From: Volutella citrinella
Lineage: Eukaryota > Ascomycota > Sordariomycetes > Hypocreales > Nectriaceae
Assembly: GCA_034401135.1 (NCBI GenBank)
Contig: JAWZSP010000008.1
Location: 1-64,000, forward strand
Reading direction: 5' to 3'
Length of the DNA stretch: 64,000 nucleotides
Below, in pieces: positions 1-61,132 of the stretch (its first letter is position 1; the number at the start of each line of letters is the position of its first letter). The translations under genes were made by a program, and so were the position numbers. The notes under the pieces are model-generated. The model was not told where the DNA came from and did not search any database. It saw only the letters and a program-made list of their open reading frames with translations.

Positions 1-140
1 CCTAACCCTAACCCTAACCCTAACCCTAACCCTAACCCTAACCCTAACCCTAACCCTAACCCTAACCCTAACCCTAACCCTAACCCTAACCCTAACCCTA
101 ACCCTAACCCTAACCCTAACCCTAACCCTAACCCTAACCC
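1..140. repeat. Telomere repeat array (CCCTAA)n
   Basis: About 23 uninterrupted copies of CCCTAA read 5' to 3' from the first base, which is the C-rich strand expected at the left end of a chromosome with the TTAGGG telomere used by filamentous fungi. The array ends at a CCCTTGCGACG junction into unique sequence. Confidence 0.98.
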
Positions 141-1736
141 TTGCGACGCAAACTCGCTTACTGTCGTGAACGCTTTCCACGGAACCCTAAACCACCCTGT
201 TAAGCCTAACTCCAACCCCGAACGTGCCGCCGGCGCGCCCTCCTTCTTCAGCGGTTAGCGGTTAGTTTAGACTCGGTACCACACCCTTCTTAACACCTCA
301 ACCCTAGCTCTTCAACTTTTACTGCCGCCAGCGCCCTTACACACCTCAGAGGTTAGCCCTCTTTAACTCCTCTCTCCTTACCCTCCTCTGCCCTTTCCAC
401 CTCACTCTCTAGTCTTACTACCACTCCCACCCCTTCACTTCTCCTGTCCGTCCAAAAGTCGACGTCGCTGTCTAAAACACCCCAGTGCCACCTACTTTAA
501 CACCCTACTTCTCTCTTAGCTCCTTGTCTCTACCCCCGTCCTGTTTCTACCACTCTTCAACCCCCCCTGCACAACTCTACTAGCACTCTTCACTCTCTTC
601 CACAACACTAAGCACCCTACGCCTCTGCTCACTGCTCTTCTACAGCTTGTACCGCTGTACACGTTAGGGTTCAACAGGCCAGGCGGTAGGTTGGGGTAGA
701 CGCAACCAGCCTGCTACCTACAGTTAGTCTCCTTGTCCTTAACCCTTACCGCGGCTGCTTACCTCACTCTACACTCCTCAGCCTTGTAGCTCTACTTGCC
801 GTCGCAGTTGCAGTCGTTGTTGTAGTTATAGTCGTAGTCGTAGTTGTAGTCGTAGTCGTAGTTGTAGTCGTAGTCGTAGTTGTAGTTGTAGTCGTAGTTA
901 TAGTTGTAGTCGTAGTCGTAGTCGTAGTTGTAGTCGTAGTCGTAGTCGTAGGTAGGGTTGGGGTTGTAGTTGTAGTGGCCCCCCTGGGGGCTGCTCTAGG
1001 GTTAGGGTCACCTCCTTGCCTTCAGCCTGCCCGTACCGTCACCCGTAGGATTAGATGTACGGTTGGGCGTAGGACCTGCCAGTCCAGCTCGGTCTCGCTA
1101 GCGTGTGCGTCACCCCATGCCGTAACAGTGCCTTAACGTACCCCCGGTGCCGTCGCAATAACTCCTTGTTGTAGATAAATTGAAACACCTTTCCCTTTTC
1201 TTGTCCGTAACCCTACGTCGGCTGTCCGGAACGCACGGTGACATTAGACCTTACTAGAAACAAGGCAGTGCCTTCTTTTAACCCTACACTACTGACCTCC
1301 GGCATAACAACGGCTCCGCCAACGAGAGGCCCTCACTGTTGACCGTCCTTGACACTCGGTGTAGGGTTAGGGTTACCTGTGAACCCTACCCTAGACCAAG
1401 ACACCGAACACATTATCGCGCCGTCTATAGCTCTGCCCCTTGTCGGCAAGTATTTACCCAGCCAAATAACGCAAAGATACGCAAGATTAAACTCATTCAA
1501 CACCTTGTAACTCGTCATCGTCTTTCCGTCCTCTATTTCTCCGATTAGACACTTGTCGAGGCTCTCTAGTACCTCTTGAAGGAAAGCGTCTTTGAGTCCA
1601 TTTACGACGCCCGCCTACTCTTTCCCGAGCTGTTTCACTCGTCTCCATCCGAACCAAGAGTGACCTGCGCCGAGTCTCCTCCTCCTACCACCTTACGCTC
1701 CTTAGCTATGGACTAGCTGCTCGCTTCTTTCCAGAG
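141..1736. other. Gene-free subtelomeric sequence
   Basis: No convincing gene. The strand is pyrimidine-rich (runs of cctctcctt, cactct), with isolated telomere-like words: TTAGGGTTCA near 665, GGGTTAGGGTCA near 998 and GTAGGGTTAGGGTTA near 1361. These interstitial copies read TTAGGG on the + strand, opposite to the terminal CCCTAA array. Short open frames near 1333-1548 on both strands look like chance. Confidence 0.7.
797..955. repeat. GTAGTY hexanucleotide microsatellite
   Basis: About 25 imperfect tandem copies of GTAGTC/GTAGTT with a few ATAGTT variants, running into TAGGTAGGGTTGGGGTTGTAG. It is a simple-sequence tract inside subtelomeric DNA with no coding frame evident. Confidence 0.9.
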
Positions 1737-12900: not shown

Positions 12901-12902
12901 AT

Positions 12903-40455: not shown

Positions 40456-42310
40456 ATGTCTATTGTCAGGGTCGATGCTAGTGAGACCAAGGTAGCGGTG
40501 GATGATGTCGTCAGCGTCGCTGCAAGAGGGGGCCTCAGTCTATCAGACCAGATGGCATCGGATTTCGCTACTCTCGTCACCGGCCTTGAAGCGGTGATTG
40601 CCAACTTGCCAGATGACAGCTGTGTCATGCCCATCCCGGACCTTACAAAGTACCCGCGGACTGATATTCATATACCCAAAGACAACGATCTTGGCGGATG
40701 GGCAACAAAGGTGAAATTTCTGGTTATTTGTGTCGCATACATAAGTTCTGCGTAGCTGACAGACAGATTGGCGCCAACAGGTTACCGCGAAAGCTACATC
40801 TCCGACAAGTGAGCTGCTCAAGGGCCGTACGATCGCATTGAAGGACAACATCGCCTTGGCTGGAGTGCGGTGTACCAATGGTACAGAAATGGTAGACTGG
40901 ACCCCGAAAGTGGACGCCACTGTCGCGACTCGCGTGATGGATGCAGGCGGCCTCATCACTGGCAAGGCAGGTAAGATGATCCTCATCGAGCCAGGCTGGC
41001 CCAATACTTGCCGAAGAAGATATCACTGATAAAGCTGTCAGCATGTGAAAACGCCTGTTTCGAGGGCCTGTCGGCATCCGCCATCACCGGCCACGTACAC
41101 AACCCCTGGGCCAAGGGTTACAGCGCCGGAGGCTCCAGCAGCGGCTCCGGCCGTCTGGTAGGAACCAGCGCCGTGGACATGTCCATTGGCTGCGATCAGG
41201 CCGGCAGTATTCGCATCCCTGCAGCTTCCTGTGGAATCGTAGGACTTAAGCCGACTTGGGGTTTGGTGCCGTACACAGGCATCATCAACTTGGATGCGGC
41301 GATCGACCACGCAGGACCGATGACGCGCACAGTACGGGATTGCGCACTGCTGTTACAGGCAATTGCCGGCCCAGACGGATGGGATGACCGACAGCAGCTG
41401 TTGGCGAGCGATGACGAGAGACTACAGTTTATCGAGGCCGTCGACGACATCGTGTCGAAGCCACAAGGCGAGATGTTGAAAGGCATCAAGATTGGTCTTC
41501 TCCAAGAAGGCTTCCAGGTCGACGGCCAGGACGAAAACCTCGTCAAGTGCGTCAAGACCGCCGTGGACAAGTTCGAGGATCTTGGTGCAACGGTGACGCC
41601 AGTGTCGATCCCCGAACACAAGCTCGGGTCCCTTGTGTGGATGAGCTCGATTGGAATCTCCTGCGGACGACAAGCCTTGCTAGGCGGGATGGAGGGACGA
41701 AAGCAGTTGTACATGACTGATCGGCTGGAGTTGATTGGGAACCGCCTGACCCAGCAGCAGTTTGACGCTCTTGGCCCTGGAGCGGCCAACTTGTATCTCA
41801 ACCACCTGTGGCTGTCCGAGAAATACGGGTCAGTTCATCAGGGGAAGTGCATGAACCTCCAAAAGTTTATCAGCGTAGGTTGCCCGCGGTCTGGGCCTTT
41901 ATTTGTTAAAGATGCTGACACTGGTGCAGGACGCCTATGATACAGCATTGAAGGAATTCGACGTCCTAGTCATGCCGACACTGCCGCACCCAGCCCCGAA
42001 ATTGCCCGAAAATGGCTACGGAGAGGGCATGCTGAAATATGCGATGCGAACAACAGGCATGATCACGAATACATCGCCATTCGATAGTGAGTCTTCGTCT
42101 TACGAAACGAGTTCGACGTGGGTTTCTAACAAAACCGCAGACTCTGGCCACCCTGCTCTTTCGATCCCAGTGGGCTTCGTCCCTGCTAGAGAAGACCAGA
42201 ACGTCAAACTTCCTGCTGGATTGCAGCTAGTGGGCCGTAAATATGCTGACGTAGATTGCCTGAAGGTTGCAGCCGCCTGGGAGAAGGGGTATGATTGGAA
42301 GACTTTGTAA
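40456..42310 (+). CDS. Amidase-signature hydrolase 2
   Basis: Five exons: join(40456..40710,40781..40970,41042..41874,41930..42086,42141..42310), 534 residues; introns 54-71 bp, all frame-checked. The triad is visible: Lys in TIALKDNIAL (about 113), cis-Ser in SAGGSSSGSGR (about 182), nucleophile Ser in GCDQAGSIRIPA (about 206). An N-terminal ~85-residue extension precedes the domain. It belongs to the GatA-like amidase family but a different subgroup from amidase 1 (low similarity outside the motifs). Cytosolic; hydrolyses an unknown amide. Confidence 0.88.
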
Positions 42311-42762: not shown

Positions 42763-43969
42763 TTATAGATCTGACTTAGCAGGTTCGCCAGCGTAGGCCC
42801 GTCGAATCAACTCTCGTATAGAGTCCCGCTCAACGGGGCGAGGGTTGTAATACGGATTACTGACTGCAATCTCGGCGGCTCTATCGACCTCAGTCTCCTT
42901 GAAACCAAAGTTCCCCAGCGCCCGCTTCACCCCGAGTTTCACCAGCAAGGAGTTAAGGCCACTGACAGCGTCACCGCTGCTGTCAGGGAGAGCATCTGCG
43001 AGCTTCTTCATGGCGTCAGGTATAGCAGGCGCGTTGTATGCTAGCGCGTGCGGGAGAACTATGGTATGTGTCTCGGCATGGGGCAGGTTAAAGGTTCCCC
43101 CGAGTGTATGGCATAGCTTGTGGTGCAGTGCCATGCCGACGGACCCTAAGCAGACGCCGCAGAGCCAAGCGCCGTACTGTGCCAAAGTACGGGCGTCTAC
43201 GTCACCCGGGGAGTCAATGATGACGGGGAGCGATGCGGCTAACGCCCTGACACCCTCAACGGCGAGCAGGTTGATGATGGGGTTGGTGTTCTGAGCATAT
43301 AGCGCTTCGACTGTAGAGGGCGGTGTTAGTGAGAGTCGGAGGAGCCATGGGGTTCGCTTAGCAGCACATATGACGGGCGATGACATGAGCGAATATACAA
43401 TAACAACAGGACATACCTGCGTGAGCAATGGCGTTTACGCCGCTAGTGGCAGACATGCCGGCGGGCAGACTCATGGTCAGATCGACATCGTAAATGACAG
43501 TGCCCGGTAGGATCTTGGGGTCAGATGTCGTCTTTTTCAGACCGTCCACTGTTTCGCCCAAGATGGGCGTCATTTCCGACCCGGCGTACGTGGTAGGAAT
43601 GCAGACGTGGGGTAGGCCAGTACGGATGGCGATGGCCTTGCCCAGTCCGATTGTGCTCCCGCCTCCAATGGAGATGATGCAATCCGACTTGACCGTCTGA
43701 GCGTATGCAAGGGCCTTATCGGTGACACTGATCGGGGTGTGCATGGTGGCTTCGGTGAAGATGCTGCTGCTGGTGACGCCGGCATCCCGCAGGAGGGCCT
43801 GCACCCTTTCGCCCTGCGAGACTTGCTGGGGTGTAGTAAGGACAAGGGGGGCAATCAGCGACTGGCGGGCCAGCTCGTCGGGAAGAGCGTCGAGCTTCCC
43901 ACGACCGAAAATGACGCGGCTGGGAGAAGCATTGTAGACGAAGCTCTGAAGGGCGGCTGCCTCAGTCAT
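42763..43969 (-). CDS. Maleylacetate reductase
   Basis: Spliced model complement(join(42763..43310,43417..43969)), 366 residues; 106-bp intron with GTATGT donor and CTCTACAG acceptor restores NAIAHAVEALYAQNTNP. Iron-ADH superfamily, maleylacetate reductase group: VIFGRGKLDALPDEL at the N terminus, the nucleotide loop SIGGGSTIGLGKAIA, the IPTTYAGSEMTPILG block and the His-rich HHKLCHTLGGTFNLPHAETH. It reduces maleylacetate to 3-oxoadipate with NAD(P)H, the last dedicated step of hydroxyquinol breakdown. The start MTEAAALQ (43969) is preferred over upstream codons because family members start here. It is divergent from the cluster regulator. Confidence 0.88.
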
Positions 43970-44740
43970 GGTCGGTTGGATCTGTGTACAGCGGAGACTG
44001 AACGAAAAGGCAGAATCGAGTACAGAGTAATTAGCAGTAGGGCGAAGTGTACAGAGCCCGTCCAAATGCCTGCTGAGTGGCCTACTAAGAGACTGTGAGT
44101 GGTTATGCAGGTTATTGACCGTATTGCTGATTTCAAATCCGGATATGGATATATGAGTCCTCAATCAGTTAGCACTAGTAGGCCCCTCCCACCGGAAGAG
44201 AGACCGGAAAGCGCACCCTGCCGCCACTGTGGGCGAAACCGTTCGGTCATGGCAACTGTCCTTCAGTTGGTTGGTCATGTGTAGCCAGGGTTGCCTTGTG
44301 TACGTCCACGGGGAAGTGCGCAGAATCCACGTCTAGGGCGTCGGAGCTCGGCTAGATTCACCCCAGGTTCCATCTCCAGAATCCAGATCTCCCCTCCCCT
44401 CCTCCCCGCACTTTGCCACTCACTAGAATGGCATGGCGCAATTTATCATGAATCGTAAGCAGCTCACTGGGGTTAGTGGTACTGGGGTCCCCCATGTTCT
44501 CGTAGGTTTTGGGACTGACGCTAGCAAAGCAGGTCGCTGCAGCGAGCGTAGAGGCGTGCGGGGGGGGGAGGCGGGAGGCGGGGAGATGGATTCCTCCCCG
44601 GAACCGCTGACTGCCGTGCGTTGTCTTCGATCGCTTATCGCTCTCACGCCCACTCTCCCGGCCCTTTTCCCGAGAAGATTGTCATCTCCCGTTGCGCAAA
44701 CCTCGCCTTGTCGCCTCGTCTCATCCACTGGGCCTGGGCC
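43970..44740. promoter_or_regulatory. Divergent promoter, reductase and cluster regulator
   Basis: 771 bp. It contains TCCGGA at 44139-44144 and CCGGA at 44192-44196 and 44204-44208; the same CCGGA/TCCGG word recurs in other promoters of the block. Confidence 0.45.
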
Positions 44741-47124
44741 ATGCCTCGCCCCAAGGTTGACCCTCGTCTGCGACGGCGCGTCGCCCATGCCTGCGATAAC
44801 TGCAAGAAGCGGAAGGCCAAGTGCAATGGGTCGCTCCCATGCGAGCAGTGCAAGCTGCGTCATGTCCCAGCTACTTGCTGCTACTCTCGGGACACCAACG
44901 GCTCCGCGCATTCGCAAGACGGAGATATTCGAGATCGGAATCACGAGATCCATGCCAGTCGTCGTCGTGACAGCCAAAGCCACAGCACGGATCGCGAGGT
45001 CCATCTACAGCTCGCTGGCGACGAGTCGCGACGGCGAGCATCATCATCATCATCGTCGTCGTTTTCCTTTTCTTCTTCTTTGCTTTTGCAATCACATAAA
45101 CTGCCCGGGAAGGTTCAGGTACCATCATCCAAGGACTCTCAGTCTCAGATGGCAAAGGACTGCAAAGGAAAATTCAGTATGTTGCCCAGTGGCCATATTC
45201 TGTTGCACTTGGTTTCGTCTTCTGGACCGTGTTCCTCGCATCATCGGCTCACATCTTCCTAGTATATGCCGGCGAATCCGCGTCCCTGTCATTTCTTGAA
45301 ACGGTGAGGAGTGCCGTGCAAGCTGCGGTCGGCTCGTGCTCTTTCACCAACGAACACTCCCGAGATGCCATGGTCGAGAATACGCCCAAGCTGTGCTTTG
45401 AAACGGCTAAGCAGCCGACTATAGATCTGGCAACGGCTCAAGCACTCACAACCCACTTCTTCCTCGCCGTCAGCGGTATTCTAGACCTCTTTGATCCCAC
45501 ATGGCTGCACGACCACCTCAACCGCTTGCTCGAAAGGCAGCCGTCACAAGAAAGCACGGCCGACACAGCTCCAACATCCGCCATTGTGTATTTGGCGCTT
45601 GCCATAGGCGCACAGGGAAGGGCACAAGGAGCAGCCGATGACCACTTGGCCGAGCTATGCTTCGCATACGGCCGGAAGCTTACCGTCCTCCACCTCGTCG
45701 ATGATCCAAGCCTCGAAACCGCACAGGCAATCATGCTCATCACGTATTACATGATTGCCTCATGCCAGTACAATGCCGCCTTTATCAACTTGGGTGTGGC
45801 CGTCAGGGCCGCTTATACCTTGGGCATCCACTTGCACGAAACGAACACGGCCTTTGGCGGCGAGCTGGGCGTGTCTCGGGAGCGTGCCTGGAAGTCGCTG
45901 AGGGTCTGCGATTTATTTCTTTCTGCATCCCTGGGGAGGCCGCCAGCAACATCGGAATCCGTCTCCAATATTCCCTGGGCCCCGATACAGTCAATGCCAG
46001 AATGCGACAGCCTGGGCGTCTCGGGCCAGTTATTCTCCGCAATGTTCAGGATCTGCCACGTCTTCGAGAGGATACTCGTCCACGTCTATGCCGAAAAAGC
46101 CGTCAGTCTCGAGCTTGCCGACAGAATCTCAAAACAGCATCGTCAGTGGACTGAAGAGCTACCGCAGATGCTCATGGTGGATGGACTAGACCCGCTTGAT
46201 GTCGAGCCAGGCTACGGCATGTCTCCGCGTAGTTTTGGGCTTTCTCTCCGTCACGGATCTAGCATCGTAACCATGGCATACTATTATTCCATCATCCTAC
46301 TAACGAGGCCGTTCCTGACGTTCCAGGTCCGGCAGGCACCAGACCGAGATTCATGGACAACCGGTAGCCAGTCGACCAAAGCCTCTCTGGCAAAGTATGC
46401 CGATGCCTGCGTCAACTCGGCGGTCAAAGGCATAGACATTGCCTACGAGTACGTTTTTGAGCTCGAAACACCAAAGCGCCAACCACTCGTCGTCAATAGT
46501 GTGTTTATATCCGCCTTATCCCTAGGCCTGGCGTGCCTGGACCCTTCGGGCCGCAATAAATGGCCCACACATGCCTCCTTGGACCGCGGAATCAAGATAC
46601 TCTCGCATCTGGGCCAGCTAAATGCCCAAGCCGCCCGCTATGCCAGTATTTGCAAGCAGCTTCGTGAAGCCGCGGCCATCTACGCCAGCCGGAGAGATGT
46701 TAGCCAGCTACAGGAAAACGAGGAAGTGGCCAGGAGCATTTTTGGCGAGGTTAGAGCTCGCTCTACAAGTGGCGTCACAAGGAGTCACAGATCCAGTGAG
46801 AGCATATCGCGGTCCATGGATTCTCCACCGCAGCCCAGTTGGAACAGCGCGGCGAATGGAAACATCGTCCGCCCAATCACGCCTCCTCTCTTTGACTTCA
46901 ACACTCTACAAGAAGCATCAATGCTACCTACCTCTGGCATCATGCCAGGACAGTCGGTTGGGGGGTTGTACGGCTATAATAGTTGCGAATCAGGCGGCGC
47001 CACTGGCGAGCCTGCTCCTGTCATTGATGCTAGCCTGGGCAATCTGTCTAGCTTCTTTCTTGGGCAGGATGTACCCCTGTTTCCGGTTACTAGCCACATG
47101 TCACCGGATCCGTTTATGTTGTGA
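44741..47124 (+). CDS. Zn2Cys6 regulator of the aromatic cluster
   Basis: Spliced model join(44741..45176,45263..47124), 765 residues; 86-bp intron GTATGT...CCTAG restores IYAGESASLSFLETVR. The zinc cluster is at residues 18-47 (CDNCKKRKAKCNGSLPCEQC then CC), with a Ser-rich linker (a run of seven Ser) and a long fungal_trans domain (ALAIGAQGRAQGAADD; ARAAYTLGIHLHE-like region; ASLGRPPATSES). A nuclear transcription factor located between maleylacetate reductase and the monooxygenase, so it is the likely pathway activator, responding to an aromatic intermediate. Confidence 0.85.
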
Positions 47125-47470
47125 TACAACACGTTGGCATACAGCTGCTACCAACATCCCTTTTCTATTTTGAGCCATGTTAATACTGTCGACGGATCCG
47201 CCGGGTGGGAAATCTGTAAGACTAGCTAAGCGTCTGATAATTCACACAAAATGATCAAATGAATGAGCTCTCTCTGGTCGCACTGCTTTTGATCTTGGTG
47301 TCATAGTCCTGCGTATCATAATTCACACTAGACGATACGAAAGGATTCTAGTGACAAGTCTCGGCATATTGCTATCAAGCATGATATTCACATTCTTCAG
47401 ATCTGATAGGTGCTTCTTAGCCAACATTGTGTATAGGTAGGAAATCGCGTATAAATAAATCTATCCATCA
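47125..47470. other. Convergent 3' intergenic region
   Basis: Between the regulator stop and the monooxygenase stop. AT-rich 3' sequence with two TGATAATTCACAC-like words (47234 and 47317); no gene. Confidence 0.5.
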
Positions 47471-49621
47471 TCAATGGGAAAACGCTAGCATCTTGTCCGC
47501 TTCCGTATTTTCCGGGAACGGCTCCGCTGGTATGTCAATAATGCCAGGCTGCAAGTAATAGGCCAAATCACCGGCATCAGCATCAACCTGTGCCGCCGAC
47601 CAACCATCGCCAAGCCACGCAAGCTGGTTGACCTTGGCCCCTTCTCCCCGCTCCTTGAGCGTATAATCGTAGTCTTCCCACCGTGGTGACCGGAGAGTCT
47701 CCATGGCGTGCATGGCGCTACCGGGCCAAACACCGCTAATGCGTGGACCCGTGCCCTGGTCGTTCCTGTACCAGCTGGAGCAGCTGTCGAGGTAGACGGT
47801 GTCTTTGAAGTACGCTTCGATAATCTGGGAAAAGTCCTTGACGCGAGCCATCTTGGGTTCCATGCTAGCAATATTTTCCTTTTGCAGCTTGCGGATGCAC
47901 TTGACGATGTAGTCCCCAGTGCGCTCAATCATGGTCGTGAGTGGGCCTGTGCCGATGGCGCCGTTGGGGCCTAGCATCATAAAGTAGTTGGGAAAGCCGT
48001 CGGTAGCAAGAGAGAGATATGATTCCGGGTATGGATCGAACTTCTGTGCCATTGTCTGCCCGTCCTTGCCGATCACGGGGAATGGCGGGGGGGCCGACGT
48101 CTGGAAACCCGTGGCACAGACCAAGATGTCTAGCTTCCTCTCGGTTCCGTCCTTGAGAACGAGGCCCGTCTCGTTGGCCTTGACAATGGGAGTATTGATG
48201 AAATTGACATTGTCCTCGACGAGTGCCTCGAGATAGCCAGGGCCGGGCGTCAGTCGGCGACAGCCAACGCTGAAGCTCGGTAGGAGTGACTTGAGGATGT
48301 GAGGCTTCTTGGCCAGTTTCTCCTGCATCAGAGCTGTAAAGACATCACGAGCAAGCTGCTGCAACTCGGTGCCCTTGAGCGTGAGGCTGTGGATCGAGTT
48401 ACCATCTCTCTCGAGAGCTGTCCGAAGCTCCAGGTAATGTTGGGTGTCTTTGGCGAACTTTTCGCGTTGCTCTGGCGAGACTGCAACAGGTTGGTCAGTA
48501 GATGTTGTCGGTTCCTCCCTGTTCAGACCTTTCTATCCTTCGTCTCTTCCACACCGCATCTTCTTACTCTTCAACGCCGATAGGTTGAGGACTAGGCAAT
48601 TTGGTACTACTCACAGTCTGTGCTCGTGATGCCGAGTTTCTTCATGATGCCGTCGCCGAACGGCCGAGATATCCACGTCCGACCCCTGACGAAACAATCA
48701 AGCCGCGTGCCCGAAATCTTTTGCAGCTGGGGGATAATTTGGATGGCACTGCTGCCGCCGCCGATGATACCAACATTCTTGTTCTTGAAATCAACACTGC
48801 GCACGCGGTTAGGTCACAAAACCATCTCGTATTGCGCAATAGTCTGCAGCCTGATTATCTTACCTGTCATCCCATGTGGCTGAGTGCATCACAGGAATCT
48901 TCATGTCGTGGATTCCAGGGATGTTCGGCCAGAACGGTTCATTCAAAGTGCCACGAGCACTAATGACAACGTCTGCCTTCTCAGTAACAACTTGTCCGGT
49001 CTGAAGGTTCTTGACGTTGACGATCCTATAAAACAAATTAGTTAGAAATGGGGCATATAGAAACCCTGCTTCCATGACTTGCCATTGTGATGTTTCGGCA
49101 TCCCATTTAGCATCCAGTACACTGTGGGAGAGCTTGATGAATCGGCCGACAGAGTATCTCTCCACCACCGATTCCAAGTACCCACGAATCTCGGCTGCAG
49201 GTGCATAAAATTTGCTCCAGTTGGGGTTCGGTGCGAAGGTATACTGGTACGAGTGTGCTGCGCATTACGATTACCGTCCGGTTAGTGGGCTCATTGTCCT
49301 ATAACCCCAAATGCGCTCCGACTCACCAGGGATGTCGCAGGCGCAGCCGGGATATCTGTTCTCATACCAGGTACCTCCGATGCCGCCATTCTTCTCATAA
49401 ATCGTCAAATCAACGTTGCGGAGCCGTTGAGGGATCCGAACCCCGCAGTAGATGCCAGAAAAGCCGGCTCCAATGACGACGACGCGCATTCGACGGAAGT
49501 TTTCCACGATTCTGGGTGGAGACTGTGTGACGGGAGCTGGACCGCCATTTGGTACAGAGTTTTGAGTGCAGTCGACGGCCTCGTCCACTGGTTGATGTGC
49601 AATGATGATGGCGGGCGCCAT
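47471..49621 (-). CDS. Baeyer-Villiger monooxygenase (4-hydroxyacetophenone type)
   Basis: Exons complement(join(47471..48480,48615..48796,48864..49025,49065..49257,49327..49621)), 613 residues. The FAD site VVVIGAGFSGIYCG (about 48-61), the IGGTWYENRYPGCACDIP block, the Baeyer-Villiger-like fingerprint IPGIHDMKIPVMHSATWD, and the second Rossmann NVGIIGGGSSAIQIIP (NADPH) all fit flavin BVMOs. By context it inserts oxygen into an aryl methyl ketone, turning 4-hydroxyacetophenone into 4-hydroxyphenyl acetate. Intron 49026-49064 is only 39 bp (TCTAACTAAT branch, TTTTATAG acceptor) and is a multiple of three without stops, so retention would give 626 residues. Confidence 0.85.
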
Positions 49622-50230
49622 GTTGTCAGGTCAGTGTTTAGATCTGCCCCGATGAGCTGCGGACTTGATGGGGGGAAGCTGCTCACTCACATAAATAAAG
49701 CAGACAGGCTATCATGGATCTCTTCTCGGGTTTGTGTGGCTTGATCATGCCATGATCACGCCTATCCATCCCCCGTTCCGGTCCGAACCATCGCATAACT
49801 GCCGGAACGAGGACCAATAGGGGCGGATGTGGGGTGACACGGTCAAGCCTCCAACAATCAGGGTCCGGAAGGAGATCAGACACTATCCGGTGGTCTTGTT
49901 GGTTAACTTCGGAGCTTTCCGGTGGGATACGAAGAGCGAGATGCTGACAGGGTTCTCCATCCGGAGGAACGCAACCTACCCCTTGTTTAGGCACTATTAG
50001 GCAACACGCGAAAATGTCCATGTGGGGAACTTTGCTAGCTGCTTCCTTCGATCTCGGAGATACGGATATTCAGCGGCCAATATAGCACAGGCTATGGCAA
50101 GCCTTCGGAATAACGGGAGGTTTCTGCACAGGAGTGGCTAGCAATGCATCACCATGTCACTCCAGCAGGCACTACTTTCGCGGCACGGGAATTGGAAGTG
50201 ATCAGTTCAGGTCGGTCGACTCTAGTTATC
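49622..50230. promoter_or_regulatory. Promoter of the Baeyer-Villiger monooxygenase
   Basis: Six TCCGG/CCGGA words lie within 190 bp (49777, 49802, 49864, 49886, 49918 and 49960), two of them the full palindrome TCCGGA. This density suggests binding by the cluster regulator, whose zinc cluster should recognise CGG. Confidence 0.5.
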
Positions 50231-51319
50231 TCAGTCTAACCCAGGTACCGGCAAGCCGTTGATGTACTCCATCTTTTGGCCCCGTGCCTCCATCGCTAAT
50301 GACGCATTCTTGAAGCGCAGGTCCAACGCCTCCTGACGGGTGACGAGCACGAAATCATACTCCATCAGTGCACTTCCTAGGTTGACTCCATACTTGGCCG
50401 CCATTGACTCATCTTCCACCTTCTTCAAAGACACCACGAGCGTGTCCTTGACGCCAAAGACTGCATCAGAAGTCTCATAGGGGTCACCCCTCAAGTAGAG
50501 TGCGCTGCGTTGGGGTGAGTCTTTCTTCTCGCTTGTAATGTGACTGGGGAATTGACGTACGTAATGAGCGGGTCGTATTCCGGATGATTGAACATGAAGT
50601 GCATGTGGCTGGGACGGTAACAGTGTCGTCCCAGCTTACCCAATAGCTTTCCGACCGGACCATCGCTGGGGATTGGATACGGAACAGGAACAATGGCTTT
50701 GAACCAGAACTGACCCTCTTTATCGCTCGTGAGAACTGCGCGACCATCAGGTCCATCGTGATCGGCATACTGCACGTCGTAGAAACCCTTGGAATCAGTC
50801 TCCCAGACGTCAATCGACACCTTCTCCAAGGGACGTCCCGACGAATCGCGGACGCTGCAGACAACAAGGAGCGGCTCCCCCTCTGGGTCTCCCGCAATGC
50901 CAGACCCGTGCTCTACATTCTTGGCCTCGTGCGTATGGAACGGACCCAGCACAGTGCCTTCTGTTGACCCCTTGGGCTTGGGATGGTCAATGGCATCTAC
51001 AAGGAGGGATGCTCCAAGGATGTCTGACAGCAAGATGAACTCCTGACAAGAGGATTGTTTCGCGTCAGATGAAGCACTCTGTGAGCGTAGCTGGACCATG
51101 GTGAAGGCGTACCTGGCGAGTATCTGTGCACGTTTGGCCGACCTTTGTGAGAAACTCGATGGTAGCCATCCACTCTTCTGTGCTCAGCCGAGTCTCCCGG
51201 ATCAGGTCGTGCAAATGAACGACTGTCCTCTCGAGCAAGAACCTAAGCCGTCGATCTGAGCATTGCGAGTTGATGAAGTGCACATTCTCGGTAATGTTAT
51301 CAATTGTGAGGTCTTTCAT
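50231..51319 (-). CDS. Hydroxyquinol 1,2-dioxygenase-type intradiol dioxygenase
   Basis: Exons complement(join(50231..50504,50561..51042,51113..51319)), 320 residues; introns 56 and 70 bp. The N-terminal dimer domain (VVHLHDLIRETRLSTEEWM, then FLTKVGQTCTDTRQEFILLS and DILGASLLVDAI) is that of intradiol dioxygenases and closest in style to hydroxyquinol enzymes. The iron(III) ligands are visible: Tyr in VPVPYPIPSDGP, Tyr and two His in GRHCYRPSHMHF. It opens hydroxyquinol to maleylacetate (as 3-hydroxy-cis,cis-muconate). It is divergent from the phenol hydroxylase that would supply its substrate. The start is MKDLTIDNITENV. Confidence 0.88.
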
Positions 51320-51918
51320 GTTGGCCAAGTCAATGATAGGGTAGCTTAGGCGTCGGGCGTTGAGGCTCAAGGACCAGCACAGGCAGATGGGATGGGGATA
51401 ATAAGTTGAACGAATACGTGCTAGCACAGCGAGCGAGATCACTCTGCTGAAATCATATTTTCTTTGAAGCCTAGCGCCACCGGTCCAACTGGGGTGGTGC
51501 TCGCTGCCGAATCAGATACGAGCAGCCATAGGTCCCTCGGCCTCCTCGCACTGCTCGCATGTGGATTCCACACGTACTATTTCGTAGATCCCACACATCC
51601 GGGTCACTGAAAGATGAAAACCCGCCTCCCCGGAAGCGTTCGGATAGCGCACCCAGCCAGTGCCGGCCCCTCCCCGTGGGGGAGTTCACTGTCGGGAACC
51701 CTCCAACTAACTAGGGGGAGTGCCGTAGCGCCTCTTAGCGGTGGCCGCAGACTGGGGTTACCCCGCTGGTGGGATAGGATGAGGTCATGAGGATAGACCA
51801 AGTTCTAGTGAATAAATCGCAGCAAGACGCTGCGTCAAGGATATCCGACCCGGTCGCATGTAGATTGTGGAATCCGTTACCTTCAACATCAATAGCAAGC
51901 CAGCAAGCAATTAACGAG
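51320..51918. promoter_or_regulatory. Divergent promoter, dioxygenase and hydroxylase
   Basis: 599 bp. It contains TCCGG at 51598 and CCGGA at 51630, plus the local inverted pair CCCCTCCCCGTGGGGGAG near 51665. Confidence 0.45.
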
Positions 51919-54135
51919 ATGCCAGTCTTTCACGAACGCTCGTACAAGCATCGCGATCTTCGCATCAACGCGACACTGGAGCCTCCTCTGCCCAGATTCA
52001 CACCGCCGCCCGATCTTACACCCAACGATGCAGGCGATGAGAAGGCCGAGGTCGTCGTTGTCGGGGTATGTTGAAACTTGGCGTCGCATCACCTCGCCCT
52101 TACTAGTTACCTCTCGAGACTCGACGGACCAGCTGACGAGAAAGCCACCCAGGCTGGCCCCGCAGGAATGATGGCCACGCTTCTGCTGGCCCGTTATGGA
52201 CTCGGGGACTCTCTTGTATGCTTTGATGCCAAGTCGGGAGCTGTCAAGGCCGGCCAGGCAGATGGTCTGCAGCCTCGGACACTAGAAGTGTTCAAGAGCT
52301 TGGATGTTGCCGAAGAGATCCTCAACCACGGTTGTCATATGTCCGAGGTGGCCTTTTGGAACCCAAAGCCAAAGCCGCGCGACCAGCCGGATGCTCCGAG
52401 CGCGATTGAGCGCACCTCGTTTGCCCCAGACATTGCTGTTGCGGCGAGATACAATTACGAAGTCACCATTCACCAGGGGCGCATCGAGCGCATCTTGGAG
52501 GAAAGTCTACGCCAGTATGCGCCTGATGCAATTCGGCGAAGCTCTCGCTTCCTCGAGTTCAAGATGGATCCCGACGGCGATGCCGAGTTCCCCGTCAGGG
52601 TCACCGTGGAGCAGGAAGATGCCAGTGGCGAAAAGACTGAGAAAAGTATCCGCACCAAGTATCTCATCGGTGCCGACGGGGCACACTCCGCGGTCAGACA
52701 ATGCATGGGCGTGGGACTGGTGGGTGAGACGACGGATCACATCTGGGGCGTCGTCGACTTCGTTGCAGACACGGAGTTCCCCGACGTGAGGAAACGCTGT
52801 GCCATCCACTCAGACGCTGGTTCCGTCATGATTATCCCCCGCGAACGTATCCAATCAGGTGAATACTTGACGCGACTCTATGTTCAGACTGTCGAAGAGG
52901 TCGAGGACGCACAGGATTCTACCACGGACAGCGCTGGGCTTCGTGAAAAAGCGAGAAGCCGGCGAGCCGCCATTACTCTGGAGTCAATCTTTGAACAGGC
53001 TCGACGAGTCTTTGAGCCATACAAGATTGAGATTAAGCAAGGCACAGAAGTCGACTGGTGGGCGGCCTACCAGATTGGACAGCGCATGGCACCGCACTTT
53101 TCCCACAAGGACGCTGCTGGCCATGATCGGGTCTTCATTGCCGGAGATGGTAAGTGGCCTCCATATCGGTATCCTAACGTGCAGTGGTCGCTGATTTAAG
53201 CACAGCTTGCCACACGCATAGCCCCAAGGCCGGCCAGGGAATGAACGTGTCCATGATGGACTCGTATAACCTCACCTGGAAGCTCGCTCACCAGATCCAC
53301 GGCCTGAGTCCGCAGTCTCCAGGTCAAGACGTTCTCTCAACGTACGACTCTGAGCGATCCAAGGTTGCCAGTATGTTGATTGAGTTTGACACGAAATTTT
53401 CATCCATGTTCTCAGGGAAGATCAACTCCGACGAGAGTGTCAAGGGCCTGACTCATGACGAGTTCCTCAAGGTTTTCAGCGACGGCAATGGGTTTTCGAG
53501 CGGTTGTGGAATCGAGTACCCTCCCGGCCTTCTTGTTGAGCCAAATCACGCCAGCATAAGTGGCCCAGTGATAGGAGATGACTTTCTAAACGGCGTGCTA
53601 AAGCCGGGACGACGTCTTCTCGATTCCAGGGTTCGTCGCTATGCAGATGCAAACTTGCGCAACTTGCACGATGGTAGGTGTACCCAGACCGACAATCTAG
53701 AATATGAAATATTTACAGGCCACAGATTTCCTCTCCACCGGTCGATTCCGCGTGCTTGCATTCACGAGTACCGATCTGCTGGATACAACCGGCAAGTCCG
53801 CCCAGGCCATCAAGAGCATTTGCGAAGACGTGTTGCCGAGTTTTCCAAGGGGCACCGTCGAGTTGGTCGCTTTGCATCCGTTCCTGGGGAGAATATTTGA
53901 GTGGGTGGATGTCCCAGCCGGTATCAAGAAGACCGCAGAGATGCGCTTTCATGGCCCCGCCGACGATGACTTGTATGCGACTTACGGTATTCGACGTGAG
54001 ACTGGTGCAGTAGCCGTAATTCGGCCGGATGGCTACGTTGGCATTGTGGCGTCTTTGGCTGATGTGTCTCTCATCGATGGATACTTGGGCAGGTGTTTGG
54101 CCAGGACTGCGCAGAAAAATGATCACTGTTCGTAG
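51919..54135 (+). CDS. FAD phenol hydroxylase
   Basis: Exons join(51919..52065,52153..53149,53206..53673,53726..54135), 673 residues; introns 87, 56 and 52 bp. Class A flavoprotein monooxygenase: the GxGxxG FAD loop VVVVGAGPAGMMATLLLARY is formed across intron 1, the DG motif is KYLIGADGAHSAVR, and the second FAD motif [20 protein letters not shown] spans intron 2. The C-terminal thioredoxin-like domain of phenol 2-monooxygenases follows (DDFLSTGRFRVLAFTSTDLL to IRPDGYVGIVASL). It ortho-hydroxylates a phenol with NADPH and O2; here hydroquinone to hydroxyquinol is likely. Start 51919 (MPVFHERSYKHRDLR) is chosen over an in-frame 51787 codon. Confidence 0.9.
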
Positions 54136-54568
54136 TGCAGTTATTATACGTCAAATATAGGCCTTTGACGCCGGCACTTGTGTTTCGCGTCCAGTTGCAT
54201 CCTTTCTCCCTCGCCTGACACGACCTCCGATGCGTTCCTCGAACTCCAGGTACAGTCCCAACCAAGGGACTGCTTACAGCTGCCTGTAGGGGTTATTGAC
54301 ATCCTAATGCTGCTTGGCCCTCAGCCTTCAGCTTGGCAGAAGGGAAAATGGGGGCACATTTCTTTTACGCCTTTCATTGTTACTTCAGCCATTGAGAATT
54401 GTGGCCATAGTATTTGACTGTGGGTCGAGCTGGACACATTATCTCTATTGTTTTAGATAATGCTCAAGACCATTCTAGTGGATTTACATGGTTTCAGGGT
54501 CACTTTTCGAACAGATGCAGTTGGTTTGGTAGCGCTTTGAGTACTAGTGCTGAAGTAACAGAAACTAT
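54136..54568. other. Convergent 3' intergenic region
   Basis: Between the hydroxylase and VAO-type oxidase stops. No gene seen. Confidence 0.5.
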
Positions 54569-56773
<2,205 letters not shown>

Positions 56774-57350
56774 GTGCTCGAGCTTTGATCCCTGAGGGGA
56801 TATGGCAAAGTGTAAGGAAGAATAAGGACAAGAGATGGAATCCGTGAAGGGGCAAGGTTTGGGAGCCGGAAGCTGTGAGACGCCGAATTAAAGCTGATAT
56901 ATGCATGATGTGGGATAGATATACGCATTGTATAGCCAAGGATATTCAGTAATACGAATACCGTAGTTGGAGGCATCGCATCACAGGGCTTGGCGGAGGG
57001 GGAAATTGTGGAGATGCGCTTCCCATTTGTCCGGGAGTGAGATTGGCAACCGATCGGATGTAGATCGTGGAGACGGAACAGGACCCATCCAGGCGAGGTG
57101 CACCATCCGGGCGGCTAGCTTGGACCTCACCACAGGCTACCTCAGACCTCCATCCGATAGGTGGCGGTGGGGTTTCTATTGTGATGGCTTTCCGATGAGC
57201 TAGTCAGTGTATTCATTTGGCCGTGTTGGCTTAAATGGATGGTGTGTGGTTCTGGTTCATCCTCTCGTCCGCCAGACAAAACGGCCGTGACCAGTCCATC
57301 AGCCGCCATCGTCCAATAATTTCAAGATTCTTCATCAAGTGCGGCAGATC
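56774..57350. promoter_or_regulatory. Divergent promoter, VAO-type oxidase and ADH
   Basis: 577 bp. It contains TCCGG at 57030 and 57106 and CATCCGATAGG near 57151, in line with the CGG words of the other promoters in the block. Confidence 0.45.
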
Positions 57351-58475
57351 ATGGCCCCCGAAACTCGACGTTCCAAGGCTGCCGTGCTCAGCCCCGGCAA
57401 TCCGCAAGTCGAGATATTGGAGAGGCAAGTGAATCCGCCAGCAGAGGGGTGCGTCCTTGTCAAGGTTCTGCGAGCGGGTATTTGCGGTACAGACGCCCAT
57501 CTCCTCAATGGCGACCAGCCTCTGCCTGGGCCAGTTGTGCTGGGGCATGAGGGTCTTGGTCAGATCATCCAGCTGGGTGAAGGCGTCACCAAAGACCACG
57601 CAGGCATCCCCATTCAACTCGGGGATATCGTTTACTGGAACCCCATCAGGCCTTGCAACGCCTGCTATGACTGCACCATCAGCCAAGACTTCACGGCCTG
57701 CCAAAATGGGACTTTTTGGTCTCCTGCAGGCCAGACGGACGTGTGGGCAAGCTACACAGAGTTGGCGACGTTGCAGCCCAGCAATTCCTTCTACAGGGTC
57801 GATTCAACAGTGCCACTGGATGCTTTCATCGCCCTAGGATGTGCTCTCCCGACCATCCTTCAAGCCTTGGATCATCTCGGGGGCATTCCCCAAGGCAGCA
57901 CCGTCGCTGTCCAGGGTGCTGGGCCCGTCGGGCTGGCGGCCATCATGATGGCAAAGCTCGCTGATGCTCGACACATTGTCTGCATTGAGGCCGCCGAGGC
58001 ACGATTACAGCGCGCCAAGGACTTTGGAGCCAATGTTCTCGTCGATATGCGCAAGCCAGAGTATTCCTCTCTACGCGCTCGGCATGACTACATCATGAAA
58101 GCTGTTGGCGCTCCTGGTGTCGGCATCGTCATCGAGTGTAGTGGCAACGCCGCCGCTTTTGAGGAAGGCATGGGTCTTCTAGCCCGCTCAGGTCGCTATC
58201 TGCTTGTAGGAACATGGGCAGGAAATGCGAGTGTTCCATTCTCTCCGTTTGAGGTGGTGCGGAAGGCCCTGAAGCTGATCGGATCAACGTTTGCCTCGCC
58301 CAAGCACTACTACAGGGCGGCCAGGATAGTGGAAGCGCACCACGACAAGTTTCCCTTGGCCGCCTGCGTTACACACAAGTTTGGTCTCGAGGAAGCGAAT
58401 CAAGCGTTGCGCGCTGTGAGTGCTGGCGAGGTTGTCAAGGCTGCCATTATTCCAAACGACGGGATTGGTGTTTAG
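57351..58475 (+). CDS. Zinc-dependent medium-chain alcohol dehydrogenase
   Basis: 374 residues, intronless, from MAPETRRSKA. Catalytic zinc ligands: Cys in RAGICGTDAHL and His-Glu in VLGHEGLG; the structural zinc cysteines are in CNACYDCTISQDFTAC. The Rossmann loop is VAVQGAGPVGLAAIMMA, with Glu in VCIEAAEARL after the second strand, favouring NAD. It would oxidise a secondary alcohol; by context 1-(4-hydroxyphenyl)ethanol to 4-hydroxyacetophenone. It is divergent from the VAO-type oxidase that makes that alcohol, which supports this role. Start is the ATG at 57351; family start fits. Confidence 0.88.
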   Translation: MAPETRRSKAAVLSPGNPQVEILERQVNPPAEGCVLVKVLRAGICGTDAHLLNGDQPLPGPVVLGHEGLGQIIQLGEGVTKDHAGIPIQLGDIVYWNPIRPCNACYDCTISQDFTACQNGTFWSPAGQTDVWASYTELATLQPSNSFYRVDSTVPLDAFIALGCALPTILQALDHLGGIPQGSTVAVQGAGPVGLAAIMMAKLADARHIVCIEAAEARLQRAKDFGANVLVDMRKPEYSSLRARHDYIMKAVGAPGVGIVIECSGNAAAFEEGMGLLARSGRYLLVGTWAGNASVPFSPFEVVRKALKLIGSTFASPKHYYRAARIVEAHHDKFPLAACVTHKFGLEEANQALRAVSAGEVVKAAIIPNDGIGV

Positions 58476-59326
58476 CAAATAGTCTATGAGTCTAATACGA
58501 GTTTTACTGTTCAGTGGTCACTAGTTAAAGAGCAGCAACCCTGTGAAGTCTCAGAGATGGTTCCTCTCCAATTTGCAACCTCATCCGCCGTTGTTGTGGT
58601 TGTGGGGTAAAGATCCGTCGGACTGTGGAAGTCTGGGGTAGTGGCTCGTTAGGAGCCGTACATCCGTACATCCTATCCTTGGGTAGAGCGGCTAGAGCCG
58701 TGGCGAAGGCTGGGCCTGTGCAAGGATCAGGCCCCCTGACAGAAGGGACAATCACCCGCCATCTCCCCTCTCTCGGCCATGCGGCATGTTGCGAGCCGTG
58801 GTGGCTGGGGGCTCCCTTGGCACCCCCGGCTTGACCTGCGAATGCTCAATCCTATCAATGCCAATGTGACAGTATCCGTTGGCACATGGTGGGCGCCGTA
58901 GACCAATGACAGATGCAGCTACTGATTATGATGATGACCAGCCCATCTTTTGCCATACCCAGTCTTGCTAGTCAGAGTTATTTGCACTGGGCACATGAGC
59001 AGCATCCGTAACCCCGCGTTTGTGGATCATTGAAATGAACAACAGTCCATTCATCAATGGATGATTCGGCTGATTCAGCTCCTTGGCCCCGCAGCGGTAC
59101 TCATCACGACAGGGAGGGGAGGGTCCCATGTGGGGGAATCCCGAAAGCTAGCAATGGATCGAGACTTGTTTCGGAAATTTGCTCACGTCAGGTCCGAGCC
59201 GGAAGACAGCCAGACTGGCATACAAATTATGGTCAGCCAGAGTGAGACAGCCATTACATTGAGTATTCTATTTCTGCTTGGATGAACTGATTCCATCATC
59301 ATTGATTCCATTATCATCTTCCCACC
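58476..59326. other. Intergenic, promoter of the esterase
   Basis: 851 bp without a supported gene. Short frames near 58525-58834 have no start context or similarity. GAGCCGGAAG lies near 59197. Confidence 0.45.
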
Positions 59327-61132
59327 ATGACTGTCATCCATCACGCCACAATTGGCCCTGTCACTGGCGTCGCTGACGAATCTTGCGTCCGGTTCCTCGG
59401 CATCAAGTACGCCGAGTTGTCGGACAGATTCGCTGCTGCCGAGAGGGTCACGTACAATGGGCAAGGCATCAGAGCAACAGCATACGGGTAAGACGCATGG
59501 CTTCACGCCAGGTTTCCGACTATCGTCAACCTTGATTACTCACCTGCTGCAACAGACCCCAAGCCATCAGTCCTCCTTCGGGTTTGGACGCCGAGTTCGG
59601 CTTCATCCAGCAATCCTTACCAAAGCCCGACTTCCCTGGGTCGAGCGATGTCGAACCTTTATCACTGAACGTCACTATCCCCAGTATCGCGGATTCAGAT
59701 CGCCTCAACAGCCTAAAGCTTCCCGTGCTCGTCTTTATTCACGGTGGAGGCTTCCAGGTCGGAAGCAATTGGTGGCCTCAGTATGACTTTGGAAAGCTCG
59801 TCAAGTTGTCGAGCGATGTGGGCACACCAATTGTGGGGGTGGGCATCAATTACCGCTTGGGAGCTGCTGGCTTTTCGACCTGTCCGGAGCTTCGTGCTGC
59901 TGGTTACCAGACCAATAATGGTCTTCGAGATCAGCGAGCTGCTTTGGGATGGATTCGTGACAACATCCAAGGCTTCGGGGGCGACCCCGACAATGTCACA
60001 GTGTTCGGAGAAAGTGCCGGCGGAGGTGAGTCAGACATTCTTGTGGCCGGCTCTCATCGCATCCGATGGGCAACCCGAGTCCAAATACTAATTCGTCGCT
60101 CAACGCGAATTTAGCCTCTACTTTATATCTTCTAATGTCAGAGGAACCCCTGATGAACCGGCTGGCCTGCTTTGGTGGAACTCCACCATTGACCGGAGAA
60201 TTACCCATCGAAGTAGCGGATCAAGTGGCCAAAAACTCCTTTCAATCTCTCGGCGTTGATACCAGCGGAAATGTTGTCGAGCAGTTGCTGCAACTTGAAC
60301 CGGACGATCTCTGGCGCAAAATGCCATTAGGAGTACCTCTGCTGCCGGTTGTTGACAAGGATGTGATTCCTAGGCTCATAAACATCCATGATTATGAAGA
60401 TTTGGAGAGCTGGATGCCAGGCGTCAACTGGGTCGACAGTATCATGGTGGGATATTCTGCACTGGATGTGAGTCATGCGGGACACCCAAGCCACGAAGAT
60501 TTATAGACTGACAGAATGGCTCAAAGGCCAGCATCATGTTCCACCTGGATCTGGTGAACTCGCATCACAAAAATGCTGCTGCTTTCCGATCTAGCGCGGC
60601 ACAGACTTTGGCCAACGACCCCGAGATTCTAGACTCGCTCTTGAGCCACTACAAATTGCGAGAGTCAGATTCTGTCGGCCTGAGTGACCAAGAACAGCTA
60701 CTACGCATTTTGAAGTTTGTCAATGACGCCGGCTTCTGCGCCCCGGCTCAACAAATGGCGGCCAAGTTCCCTCGAGACACGTATCTCTTCTCATTTGAGG
60801 AGGCCAACCCCTGGGACGGAAAGTTCAAGGGATTCTGCACGCATATCCTCGACGTGGCTTTCTTGATGCAGAACTTCAACCACTTGCTGAGTCCCGAGCA
60901 ACAGGCTGCAGCGAGAACCCTGGGCAAGGACCTTATTTCCTTTACTAATAATCAGCCGCCGTGGCCGGCTTACAATCAGCAGCAGGACGTCATGGCTACA
61001 TATGCCAATGGAGGTAGAACGATAAACAAGGCACATGACGACTCGGTTCTAGGGAATCCGTTTAAACAAGTCAAGACTGTAAAAGACAGACAGAAGTTGG
61101 TCAATGTGTGGCTAGACTTTATGCGTCTCTGA
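59327..61132 (+). CDS. Type-B carboxylesterase
   Basis: Exons join(59327..59487,59556..60025,60115..60467,60515..61132), 533 residues; introns 68, 89 and 47 bp (the last may instead end at 60526, giving 529). Alpha/beta-hydrolase of the carboxylesterase/lipase family: oxyanion-hole VLVFIHGGGFQVGSNW, nucleophile in VTVFGESAGGAST (Ser about 206, made across intron 2) and a late His in FCTHILDVAFLMQNF. No signal peptide, so intracellular. By context it splits 4-hydroxyphenyl acetate from the Baeyer-Villiger step into hydroquinone and acetate. Confidence 0.85.

What the first reader, a model, noticed from the sequence alone, without database searches (positions are those of the whole stretch)
42763..61132. 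Complete 4-alkylphenol (4-ethylphenol) catabolic gene cluster
Eight adjacent genes encode every step from a para-alkylphenol to 3-oxoadipate: VAO-type oxidase, zinc ADH, Baeyer-Villiger monooxygenase, carboxylesterase, FAD phenol hydroxylase, hydroxyquinol-type dioxygenase, maleylacetate reductase, plus a Zn2Cys6 regulator. In order this gives 4-ethylphenol > 1-(4-hydroxyphenyl)ethanol > 4-hydroxyacetophenone > 4-hydroxyphenyl acetate > hydroquinone > hydroxyquinol > maleylacetate > 3-oxoadipate. The chemistry is known biochemically for some fungi and, from hydroxyacetophenone on, for bacteria. A single fungal cluster with all enzymes and its own regulator near a telomere appears not to be a standard annotation. 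Enzyme families are seen in the sequence; substrates are inferred from order and completeness.
Basis: partly seen in the sequence, partly recalled or inferred. Interest (0 to 1): 0.93.

Follow-up and report, generated by a model that had tools for sequence, protein, structure and literature searches.

The report
Fungal 4-alkylphenol breakdown gene cluster
Eight neighbouring genes near a chromosome end of a fungus look like a complete kit for eating small phenols such as 4-ethylphenol, a route known from fungal chemistry but for which our searches found no described set of genes.

Summary
Window 42763-61132 carries eight intact, adjacent genes: maleylacetate reductase, Zn2Cys6 regulator, Baeyer-Villiger-type monooxygenase (BVMO), hydroxyquinol dioxygenase, FAD hydroxylase, VAO-type oxidase, zinc ADH, carboxylesterase. 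They start about 43 kb from telomere repeats.

The oxidase keeps the seven VAO active-site residues checked. The hydroxylase matches the hydroquinone 2-hydroxylase TvMNX3 best. Dioxygenase and reductase match their named families. Substrates of BVMO, esterase and ADH remain inferred.

New here: the oxidase has Asp at VAO position 457, as do 14 of 120 listed relatives (98 have Thr). The BVMO signature FxG reads MxI; 20 of 120 listed relatives have Ile there. BVMOs of that form share a contig with a regulator homologue in 6 of 19 cases, the others in 0 of 99; Asp457 oxidases in 3 of 14, the others in 0 of 105. The oxidase is less constantly linked to the BVMO (1 of 19 contigs).

The genome has three more dioxygenase-plus-reductase loci with different neighbours. 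The chemistry is known from Aspergillus fumigatus; no listing of ten literature searches showed a fungal gene cluster for it.

The parts
42763..43969 (-). Maleylacetate reductase (iron-ADH family), 2 exons, 366 aa
   Evidence: Pfam ADH_Fe_C and Fe-ADH; PDB maleylacetate reductases 3w5s 375 bits and 3hl0 372 bits, top row 3jzd 401 bits named only iron-containing ADH; model
44741..47124 (+). Zn2Cys6 transcription factor, 2 exons, 765 aa; likely pathway regulator
   Evidence: Zn_clus and Fungal_trans over cut-off; six-cysteine motif; homologue FDECE_8028 next to BVMO FDECE_8029
47471..49621 (-). BVMO-type flavin monooxygenase with variant signature MKIPVMHSATWD, 4 exons, 626 aa
   Evidence: PDB type I BVMOs, best steroid monooxygenase 178 bits; motifs
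50231..51319 (-). Hydroxyquinol 1,2-dioxygenase, 3 exons, 320 aa
   Evidence: PDB 8r2v 299 bits (named intradiol dioxygenase), 8r2w 285 and 1tmx 211 (hydroxyquinol dioxygenases), catechol and chlorocatechol enzymes 102 or less
51919..54135 (+). FAD phenol hydroxylase, probably hydroquinone 2-hydroxylase, 4 exons, 673 aa
   Evidence: FAD_binding_3 and Phe_hydrox_dim; best PDB 8r2u 370 bits against 319 for 1pn0; 8R2U is TvMNX3, a hydroquinone 2-hydroxylase
54569..56773 (-). VAO-type 4-phenol oxidase with Asp170 and Asp457 (Penicillium VAO numbering), 7 exons, 612 aa
57351..58475 (+). Zinc-dependent alcohol dehydrogenase, 1 exon, 374 aa
   Evidence: ADH_N and ADH_zinc_N; best PDB 1vj0 168 bits; GICGTD and GHE
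59327..61132 (+). Carboxylesterase, 4 exons, 529 aa
   Evidence: COesterase; PDB para-nitrobenzyl esterase 102 bits; HGGGF and GESAGG
1..141 (.). Telomere repeats, CCTAAC x 23.5

Best explanation
A self-contained fungal catabolic gene cluster with its own regulator, for 4-alkylphenols without ring methoxy groups, typified by 4-ethylphenol and entered equally by 4-hydroxyacetophenone. Proposed order: the VAO-type oxidase hydroxylates the benzylic carbon; the ADH makes the aryl ketone; the BVMO inserts oxygen to give 4-hydroxyphenyl acetate; the esterase frees hydroquinone; the FAD hydroxylase makes hydroxyquinol; the dioxygenase opens the ring to maleylacetate; the reductase gives 3-oxoadipate. 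The Zn2Cys6 protein probably activates the genes. Shown here: presence, intactness, families, key residues, and linkage of regulator and BVMO in other fungi. Inferred: every substrate, the regulation, the expression.
For: Eight intact adjacent genes covering each step. Oxidase keeps Y108, D170, Y187, H422, C470, Y503 and R504. Hydroxylase closest to a hydroquinone 2-hydroxylase and with only weaker relatives elsewhere in the genome: best-scoring 44%, one 184-residue stretch 55%. Dioxygenase and reductase closest to hydroxyquinol-pathway enzymes. Regulator and BVMO with consecutive locus tags in Fusarium decemcellulare; regulator, BVMO and oxidase on one contig of Penicillium waksmanii; 6 of 19 variant BVMOs share a contig with a regulator hit against 0 of 99 others. 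The same ester-to-hydroxyquinol chemistry is reported for A. fumigatus on 4-ethylphenol (PMC3727088 passages).
Against: No expression or activity data. Only 1 of 19 variant-BVMO contigs also carries a listed oxidase hit, so the oxidase may not be a constant member. Linkage of ADH, esterase, hydroxylase, dioxygenase and reductase in other fungi was not tested. ADH and esterase belong to broad families. BVMO signature not canonical. No significant shared promoter motif. Fusarium nematophilum, with the closest oxidase (87%), is not among the 120 BVMO rows.
Confidence: 0.72

Rival explanations
1. The conserved unit is an aryl-ketone cluster (regulator, BVMO, esterase and lower pathway) for plant or lignin ketones such as 4-hydroxyacetophenone; oxidase and ADH are a later, optional head in this lineage.
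For: Regulator and BVMO hits share 6 contigs but oxidase and BVMO hits only 1; a second BVMO-esterase-regulator group without a VAO match lies at C3 95-106 kb.
Against: Oxidase and regulator hits share 3 contigs, only Asp457 forms (3 of 14 against 0 of 105); P. waksmanii has all three. Only the best 120 rows of each search were seen, so oxidases in the other genomes may be unlisted.
Confidence: 0.2
2. The cluster serves para-hydroxybenzyl substrates (p-cresol, 4-hydroxybenzyl alcohol or its ethers): oxidase and ADH give 4-hydroxybenzaldehyde, the BVMO turns it into a formate ester, the esterase frees hydroquinone.
For: VAO-type enzymes act on such substrates (family knowledge, recalled), and the enzyme set fits the chemistry equally.
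Against: Fungi are reported to oxidise 4-hydroxybenzaldehyde to 4-hydroxybenzoate instead (T. versicolor, PMC12915361 passage); a BVMO plus esterase is the reported way for acetophenone-type ketones.
Confidence: 0.12
3. A secondary-metabolite or detoxification cluster in which BVMO and oxidase tailor a fungal product.
For: Subtelomeric site; some BVMO relatives carry the automatic label 'sterigmatocystin biosynthesis monooxygenase'.
Against: No polyketide synthase, peptide synthetase or terpene family appeared among the frames scanned in and around the cluster (not every frame was scanned); three ring-degrading genes are interleaved with the others.
Confidence: 0.05

Closest known systems
4-Ethylphenol catabolism of Aspergillus fumigatus (Jones, Trudgill and Hopper 1994; seen only through passages of the review PMC3727088)
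   Same: 4-hydroxyphenyl acetate hydrolysed to hydroquinone, then 1,2,4-trihydroxybenzene and ring fission
   Different: Known there as chemistry; the passages name no genes. The steps before the ester are recalled, not seen in a call
Bacterial hap pathway of Pseudomonas fluorescens ACB (passages of PMC3727088)
   Same: 4-hydroxyacetophenone to 4-hydroxyphenyl acetate to hydroquinone
   Different: Hydroquinone is cleaved by a two-component dioxygenase, not hydroxylated to hydroxyquinol; no VAO head (recalled)
Rhodococcus rhodochrous GD02 acpAB (PMC9618137 passages)
   Same: BVMO plus esterase for an aryl ketone (acetophenone)
   Different: Two genes only; in GD02 4-hydroxyacetophenone itself goes by phosphorylation and carboxylation
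Scedosporium hydroxyquinol locus (PMC8283699 passages) and white-rot 4-hydroxybenzoate route (PMC12915361 passages)
   Same: Adjacent maleylacetate reductase and dioxygenase; hydroquinone 2-hydroxylase feeding an intradiol dioxygenase
   Different: Scedosporium locus has a CoA-transferase and a P450, and that paper's text has no 'Baeyer' or 'vanillyl'; white-rot hydroquinone comes from 4-hydroxybenzoate
Vanillyl alcohol oxidase of Penicillium simplicissimum
   Same: 63% identity; all seven active-site residues checked
   Different: Asp for Thr457, Val for Thr459, Ser for Ile238

Membership tests
Vanillyl alcohol oxidase / 4-phenol oxidase | Flavin-linking His422, catalytic Asp170, phenol-binding Y108, Y503, R504 | tested here: met
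   All present
Vanillyl alcohol oxidase / 4-phenol oxidase | Oxidation of 4-alkylphenols | not testable with these tools
   Needs enzyme assay
Type I BVMO | Two GxGxx(G/A) Rossmann motifs | tested here: met
   GAGFSG at 51, GGGSSA at 242
Type I BVMO | Signature FxGxxxHxxxW(P/D), as used in PMC3762062 with only F/Y or H/Q changes allowed | tested here: not met
   Reads MKIPVMHSATWD: H, W and D kept, F and G changed; Ile for Gly in 20 of 120 listed relatives, F and G in 100. Homologous to BVMOs and filed as BVMO-type, working like a BVMO, not as a strict member by pattern
4-Hydroxyacetophenone monooxygenase | Close sequence to a characterised enzyme, or activity | tested here: inconclusive
   No listed row bears that name (120 rows; 40 of 360 records, best 31%); best NCBIfam hit is pentalenolactone D synthase at 119 bits, cut-off 1100
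Hydroquinone 2-hydroxylase | Closest to a proven hydroquinone 2-hydroxylase rather than phenol hydroxylase | tested here: met
   8r2u 370 bits against 1pn0 319 bits; identity of 8R2U from PMC12915361 passage
Hydroxyquinol 1,2-dioxygenase | Closer to hydroxyquinol than to catechol dioxygenases; Tyr/Tyr/His/His iron-ligand motifs (ligands recalled) | tested here: met
   285 and 211 bits against 102 or less; GFYD, PYPIP, RPSHMH
Maleylacetate reductase | Closest to maleylacetate reductases among iron-type ADHs | tested here: met
   375 and 372 bits; two generically named iron-ADH rows score 401 and 284, the rest 109 or less
Fungal catabolic gene cluster | Conserved linkage in other species | tested here: inconclusive
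   Met for regulator and BVMO (tags FDECE_8028/8029; 6 of 19 against 0 of 99), weaker for the oxidase (3 of 14 against 0 of 105; 1 of 19 BVMO contigs); not tested for the other five genes
Fungal catabolic gene cluster | Shared regulator site in promoters; joint induction | tested here: inconclusive
   CCG-N8-CGG in 3 of 5 promoters, reached by 44 of 1500 shuffles, 63 patterns tried; expression not testable here

The most novel reading that the evidence does not exclude
Ascomycetes have their own aryl-ketone pathway, convergent with bacterial BVMO-esterase routes and marked by two cluster-linked enzyme forms: a VAO with two active-site acids (Asp170 and Asp457) specialised for hydroxylating 4-alkylphenols, perhaps with stereochemistry opposite to Penicillium VAO and matched to the cluster's ADH; and a BVMO clade with an MxI signature that acts as the fungal 4-hydroxyacetophenone monooxygenase and is missed by the standard BVMO pattern.
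Probability: 0.38. Interest if true: 0.66.

Novelty: new variant of a known kind. Interest (0 to 1): 0.52.

Why it matters
Fungal 4-ethylphenol metabolism is known as chemistry, and no gene set for the whole route turned up in the literature searched. A compact eight-gene set with a regulator makes it directly testable. It also offers two residue-level hypotheses, and genes of possible use for alkylphenols from lignin. The three other dioxygenase-plus-reductase loci suggest that one lower pathway is reused with different upstream heads.

Tried and rejected
Shared promoter motif: 63 CGG/CCG arrangements over five promoters. The best (CCG-N8-CGG) is in three; 0 of 300 sets of window segments reached that, but 44 of 1500 dinucleotide shuffles did, before correction for 63 tries, and the pattern is not enriched in the window (8 found, 13.9 expected). 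No 8-mer is in four or more promoters. Rejected as evidence.

Bacterial counterpart: 14 bacterial loci with a VAO relative (two peptide patterns, flanks of up to 10 kb, several cut short). 0 of 14 has a BVMO, esterase, reductase, hydroxylase or regulator match; 2 of 14 have a weak dioxygenase match and 4 of 14 an ADH match of 26-30%.

First splice model of the oxidase: two junctions were wrong and were replaced after comparison with Penicillium VAO. One esterase junction was corrected likewise. The regulator's C-terminal intron of the automatic model was dropped, since the frame is open through it.

A structure job for oxidase homologue P0121 (alignment A1) was unfinished at two collections and is not used. 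The cupin-like protein beside the second BVMO matched nothing in the PDB. The host species was not identified; many of the closest named proteins are from Hypocreales such as Fusarium, Clonostachys and Trichoderma.
Full report
WHAT IS THERE. The window is the first 64 kb of contig C8 of a 45.1 Mb, 26-contig assembly and begins with telomere-type repeats. Between 42763 and 61132 lie eight genes with intact exon models and GT...AG introns. In chromosome order: maleylacetate reductase (-), Zn2Cys6 regulator (+), BVMO-type monooxygenase (-), hydroxyquinol dioxygenase (-), FAD hydroxylase (+), VAO-type oxidase (-), zinc ADH (+), carboxylesterase (+). Three pairs are divergent: reductase/regulator, dioxygenase/hydroxylase, oxidase/ADH. 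The neighbours scanned are an amidase and an amino-acid-transporter-like frame. None of the eight is a transporter.

LOWER PATHWAY. The FAD hydroxylase matches PDB 8r2u best (370 bits, against 319 for the phenol hydroxylase 1pn0). A 2026 paper calls 8R2U TvMNX3, a hydroquinone 2-hydroxylase of Trametes versicolor (PMC12915361, passages). The dioxygenase matches 8r2v (299 bits, named only intradiol dioxygenase), then hydroxyquinol dioxygenases 8r2w (285) and 1tmx (211); catechol and chlorocatechol enzymes reach 102 or less. The reductase matches maleylacetate reductases 3w5s and 3hl0 at 375 and 372 bits; two rows with general iron-ADH names score 401 (3jzd) and 284 (3iv7), the rest 109 or less. 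Hydroquinone to 3-oxoadipate is thus the firmest part. Elsewhere in the genome the hydroxylase has only weaker relatives: the best-scoring is 44% identical, and one stretch of 184 residues is 55%. The dioxygenase has four relatives at 55-69% and two weaker ones.

UPPER PATHWAY. The oxidase is 63% identical to Penicillium VAO (P0205) and keeps Y108, D170, Y187, H422, C470, Y503 and R504. [quoted passage not shown] Of the 120 listed relatives 98 have Thr, 14 Asp, 4 Ser, 2 Lys, 1 Asn and 1 Ala. The query and the eight relatives grouped with it in the tree all have Asp (support 0.987); the six other Asp carriers lie outside that group, so the residue arose or was lost more than once. The PDB chain 1e0y, shown, carries Ser170 and Glu457. 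I recall, from no call, that this engineered VAO inverts stereochemistry on 4-ethylphenol. The query has both acids. It also differs at 459 (Val) and 238 (Ser).

The BVMO has both Rossmann motifs and GGTWYENRYPGCACD, but the FxGxxxHxxxW signature reads MKIPVMHSATWD. Of 120 listed relatives 100 have F and G there; 20 have Ile for Gly, with Met (17), Ile (2) or Leu (1) for Phe. These 20 are among the first 21 rows. A published search for BVMO genes in A. fumigatus allowed only F/Y or H/Q changes in this signature (PMC3762062 passage), so such a filter would miss this form. The esterase and ADH belong to broad families; their roles rest on context.

IS IT A CONSERVED UNIT? In Fusarium decemcellulare the regulator is FDECE_8028 and the BVMO FDECE_8029, both on a 40,499-base contig. 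Hits were matched by exact contig length, using all rows with a length (118 of 120 BVMO, 119 of 120 oxidase). Variant-signature BVMOs share a contig with a regulator hit in 6 of 19 cases, the others in 0 of 99 (Fisher 8e-6). Asp457 oxidases do so in 3 of 14 cases, the others in 0 of 105 (p 0.0013); one of the three (Capronia) rests on a regulator of 35% identity. Penicillium waksmanii has all three on one contig. Limits: a shared long contig is not adjacency; taxa are not independent; rows stand for clusters; both variants are also the closest hits, so general relatedness may explain part of this. Against the reading, 1 of 19 variant-BVMO contigs also carries a listed oxidase hit. Linkage of the other five genes was not tested.

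REST OF THE GENOME. Dioxygenase and reductase genes lie within 10 kb of each other at three more places: C6 436-439 kb beside shikimate/quinate-type genes and a sugar-type transporter; C5 397-408 kb beside P450s and short-chain dehydrogenases; C4 677-686 kb beside P450s, a FAD hydroxylase, an alpha/beta hydrolase and, at 668 kb, an esterase up to 63% identical over one exon. A fifth dioxygenase at C7 157 kb has no reductase match in the 18 kb read. This fits one lower pathway with different heads, as a reading of family names. The closest other match of the regulator in the genome is 33%.

HOW IT PROBABLY WORKS. Best reading (0.72): 4-alkylphenol to 3-oxoadipate through aryl ketone, phenyl ester, hydroquinone and hydroxyquinol, with the regulator as likely activator. 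Rivals: a ketone core with optional oxidase head (0.2, overlapping), a p-cresol route through formate esters (0.12), a secondary-metabolite role (0.05). The figures are not exclusive.

COMPARISON WITH THE LITERATURE. PMC3727088 says that in A. fumigatus on 4-ethylphenol hydroquinone comes from 4-hydroxyphenyl acetate and goes on to 1,2,4-trihydroxybenzene, and that Pseudomonas fluorescens ACB uses 4-hydroxyacetophenone through the same ester (passages). Rhodococcus GD02 uses a BVMO and an esterase for acetophenone, but phosphorylation and carboxylation for 4-hydroxyacetophenone (PMC9618137 passages). Scedosporium has an adjacent reductase-dioxygenase pair with other neighbours (PMC8283699 passages). 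Neither that paper nor a 2025 Scedosporium phenol paper (PMC12366324) has 'Baeyer' or 'vanillyl' in its main text. Ten searches showed no title or start of abstract describing a fungal gene cluster for this route; one search listed 20 of 62 papers. Most subscription papers are not held, so this is absence in what was searched only. No paper was read whole.

VERDICT. A real, intact cluster, with linkage conserved for at least regulator and BVMO: a new variant of a known kind (fungal aromatic-catabolic clusters, known chemistry). Candidate genes for an old pathway and two cluster-linked active-site variants justify about 0.5.

Noticed in passing
G000 C6:436-439 kb, C5:397-408 kb, C4:677-686 kb (loci L025, L028, L029, L031, L032): Three more hydroxyquinol dioxygenase plus maleylacetate reductase loci, each with different neighbours (quinate-type genes; P450s and short-chain dehydrogenases; P450s, FAD hydroxylase and esterase).
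   Followed up: partly
G000 C3:95-106 kb (loci L035, L036): Second BVMO (58% and 48% over two stretches) near a regulator-like protein (28-30%, zinc part 41%), an esterase (27%) and a 299-aa protein with a weak cupin match below cut-off and no PDB match: perhaps a sister ketone cluster.
   Followed up: partly
G000 C4:38.2-40.2 kb (locus L037) and C8:2293-2295 kb: Further VAO-type genes matching exon by exon, 48-65% at C4 and 33-69% at C8.
   Followed up: no
G000 C10:29.1-30.6 kb and C11:66.1-67.6 kb: Two phenol-hydroxylase-like genes with almost the same match values and frame lengths on two small-numbered contigs, which suggests a recent duplication.
   Followed up: no
window 33341-35128 and 40975-42310: Two amidase genes left of the cluster, with a GH32 enzyme, a TRI12-type efflux pump part and a sugar transporter further left.
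   Followed up: no
window 10001-14000: G+C falls to 42% against 48-61% in the other 2-kb windows, with tandem repeats at 10295-10439 and 12632-12706.
   Followed up: no
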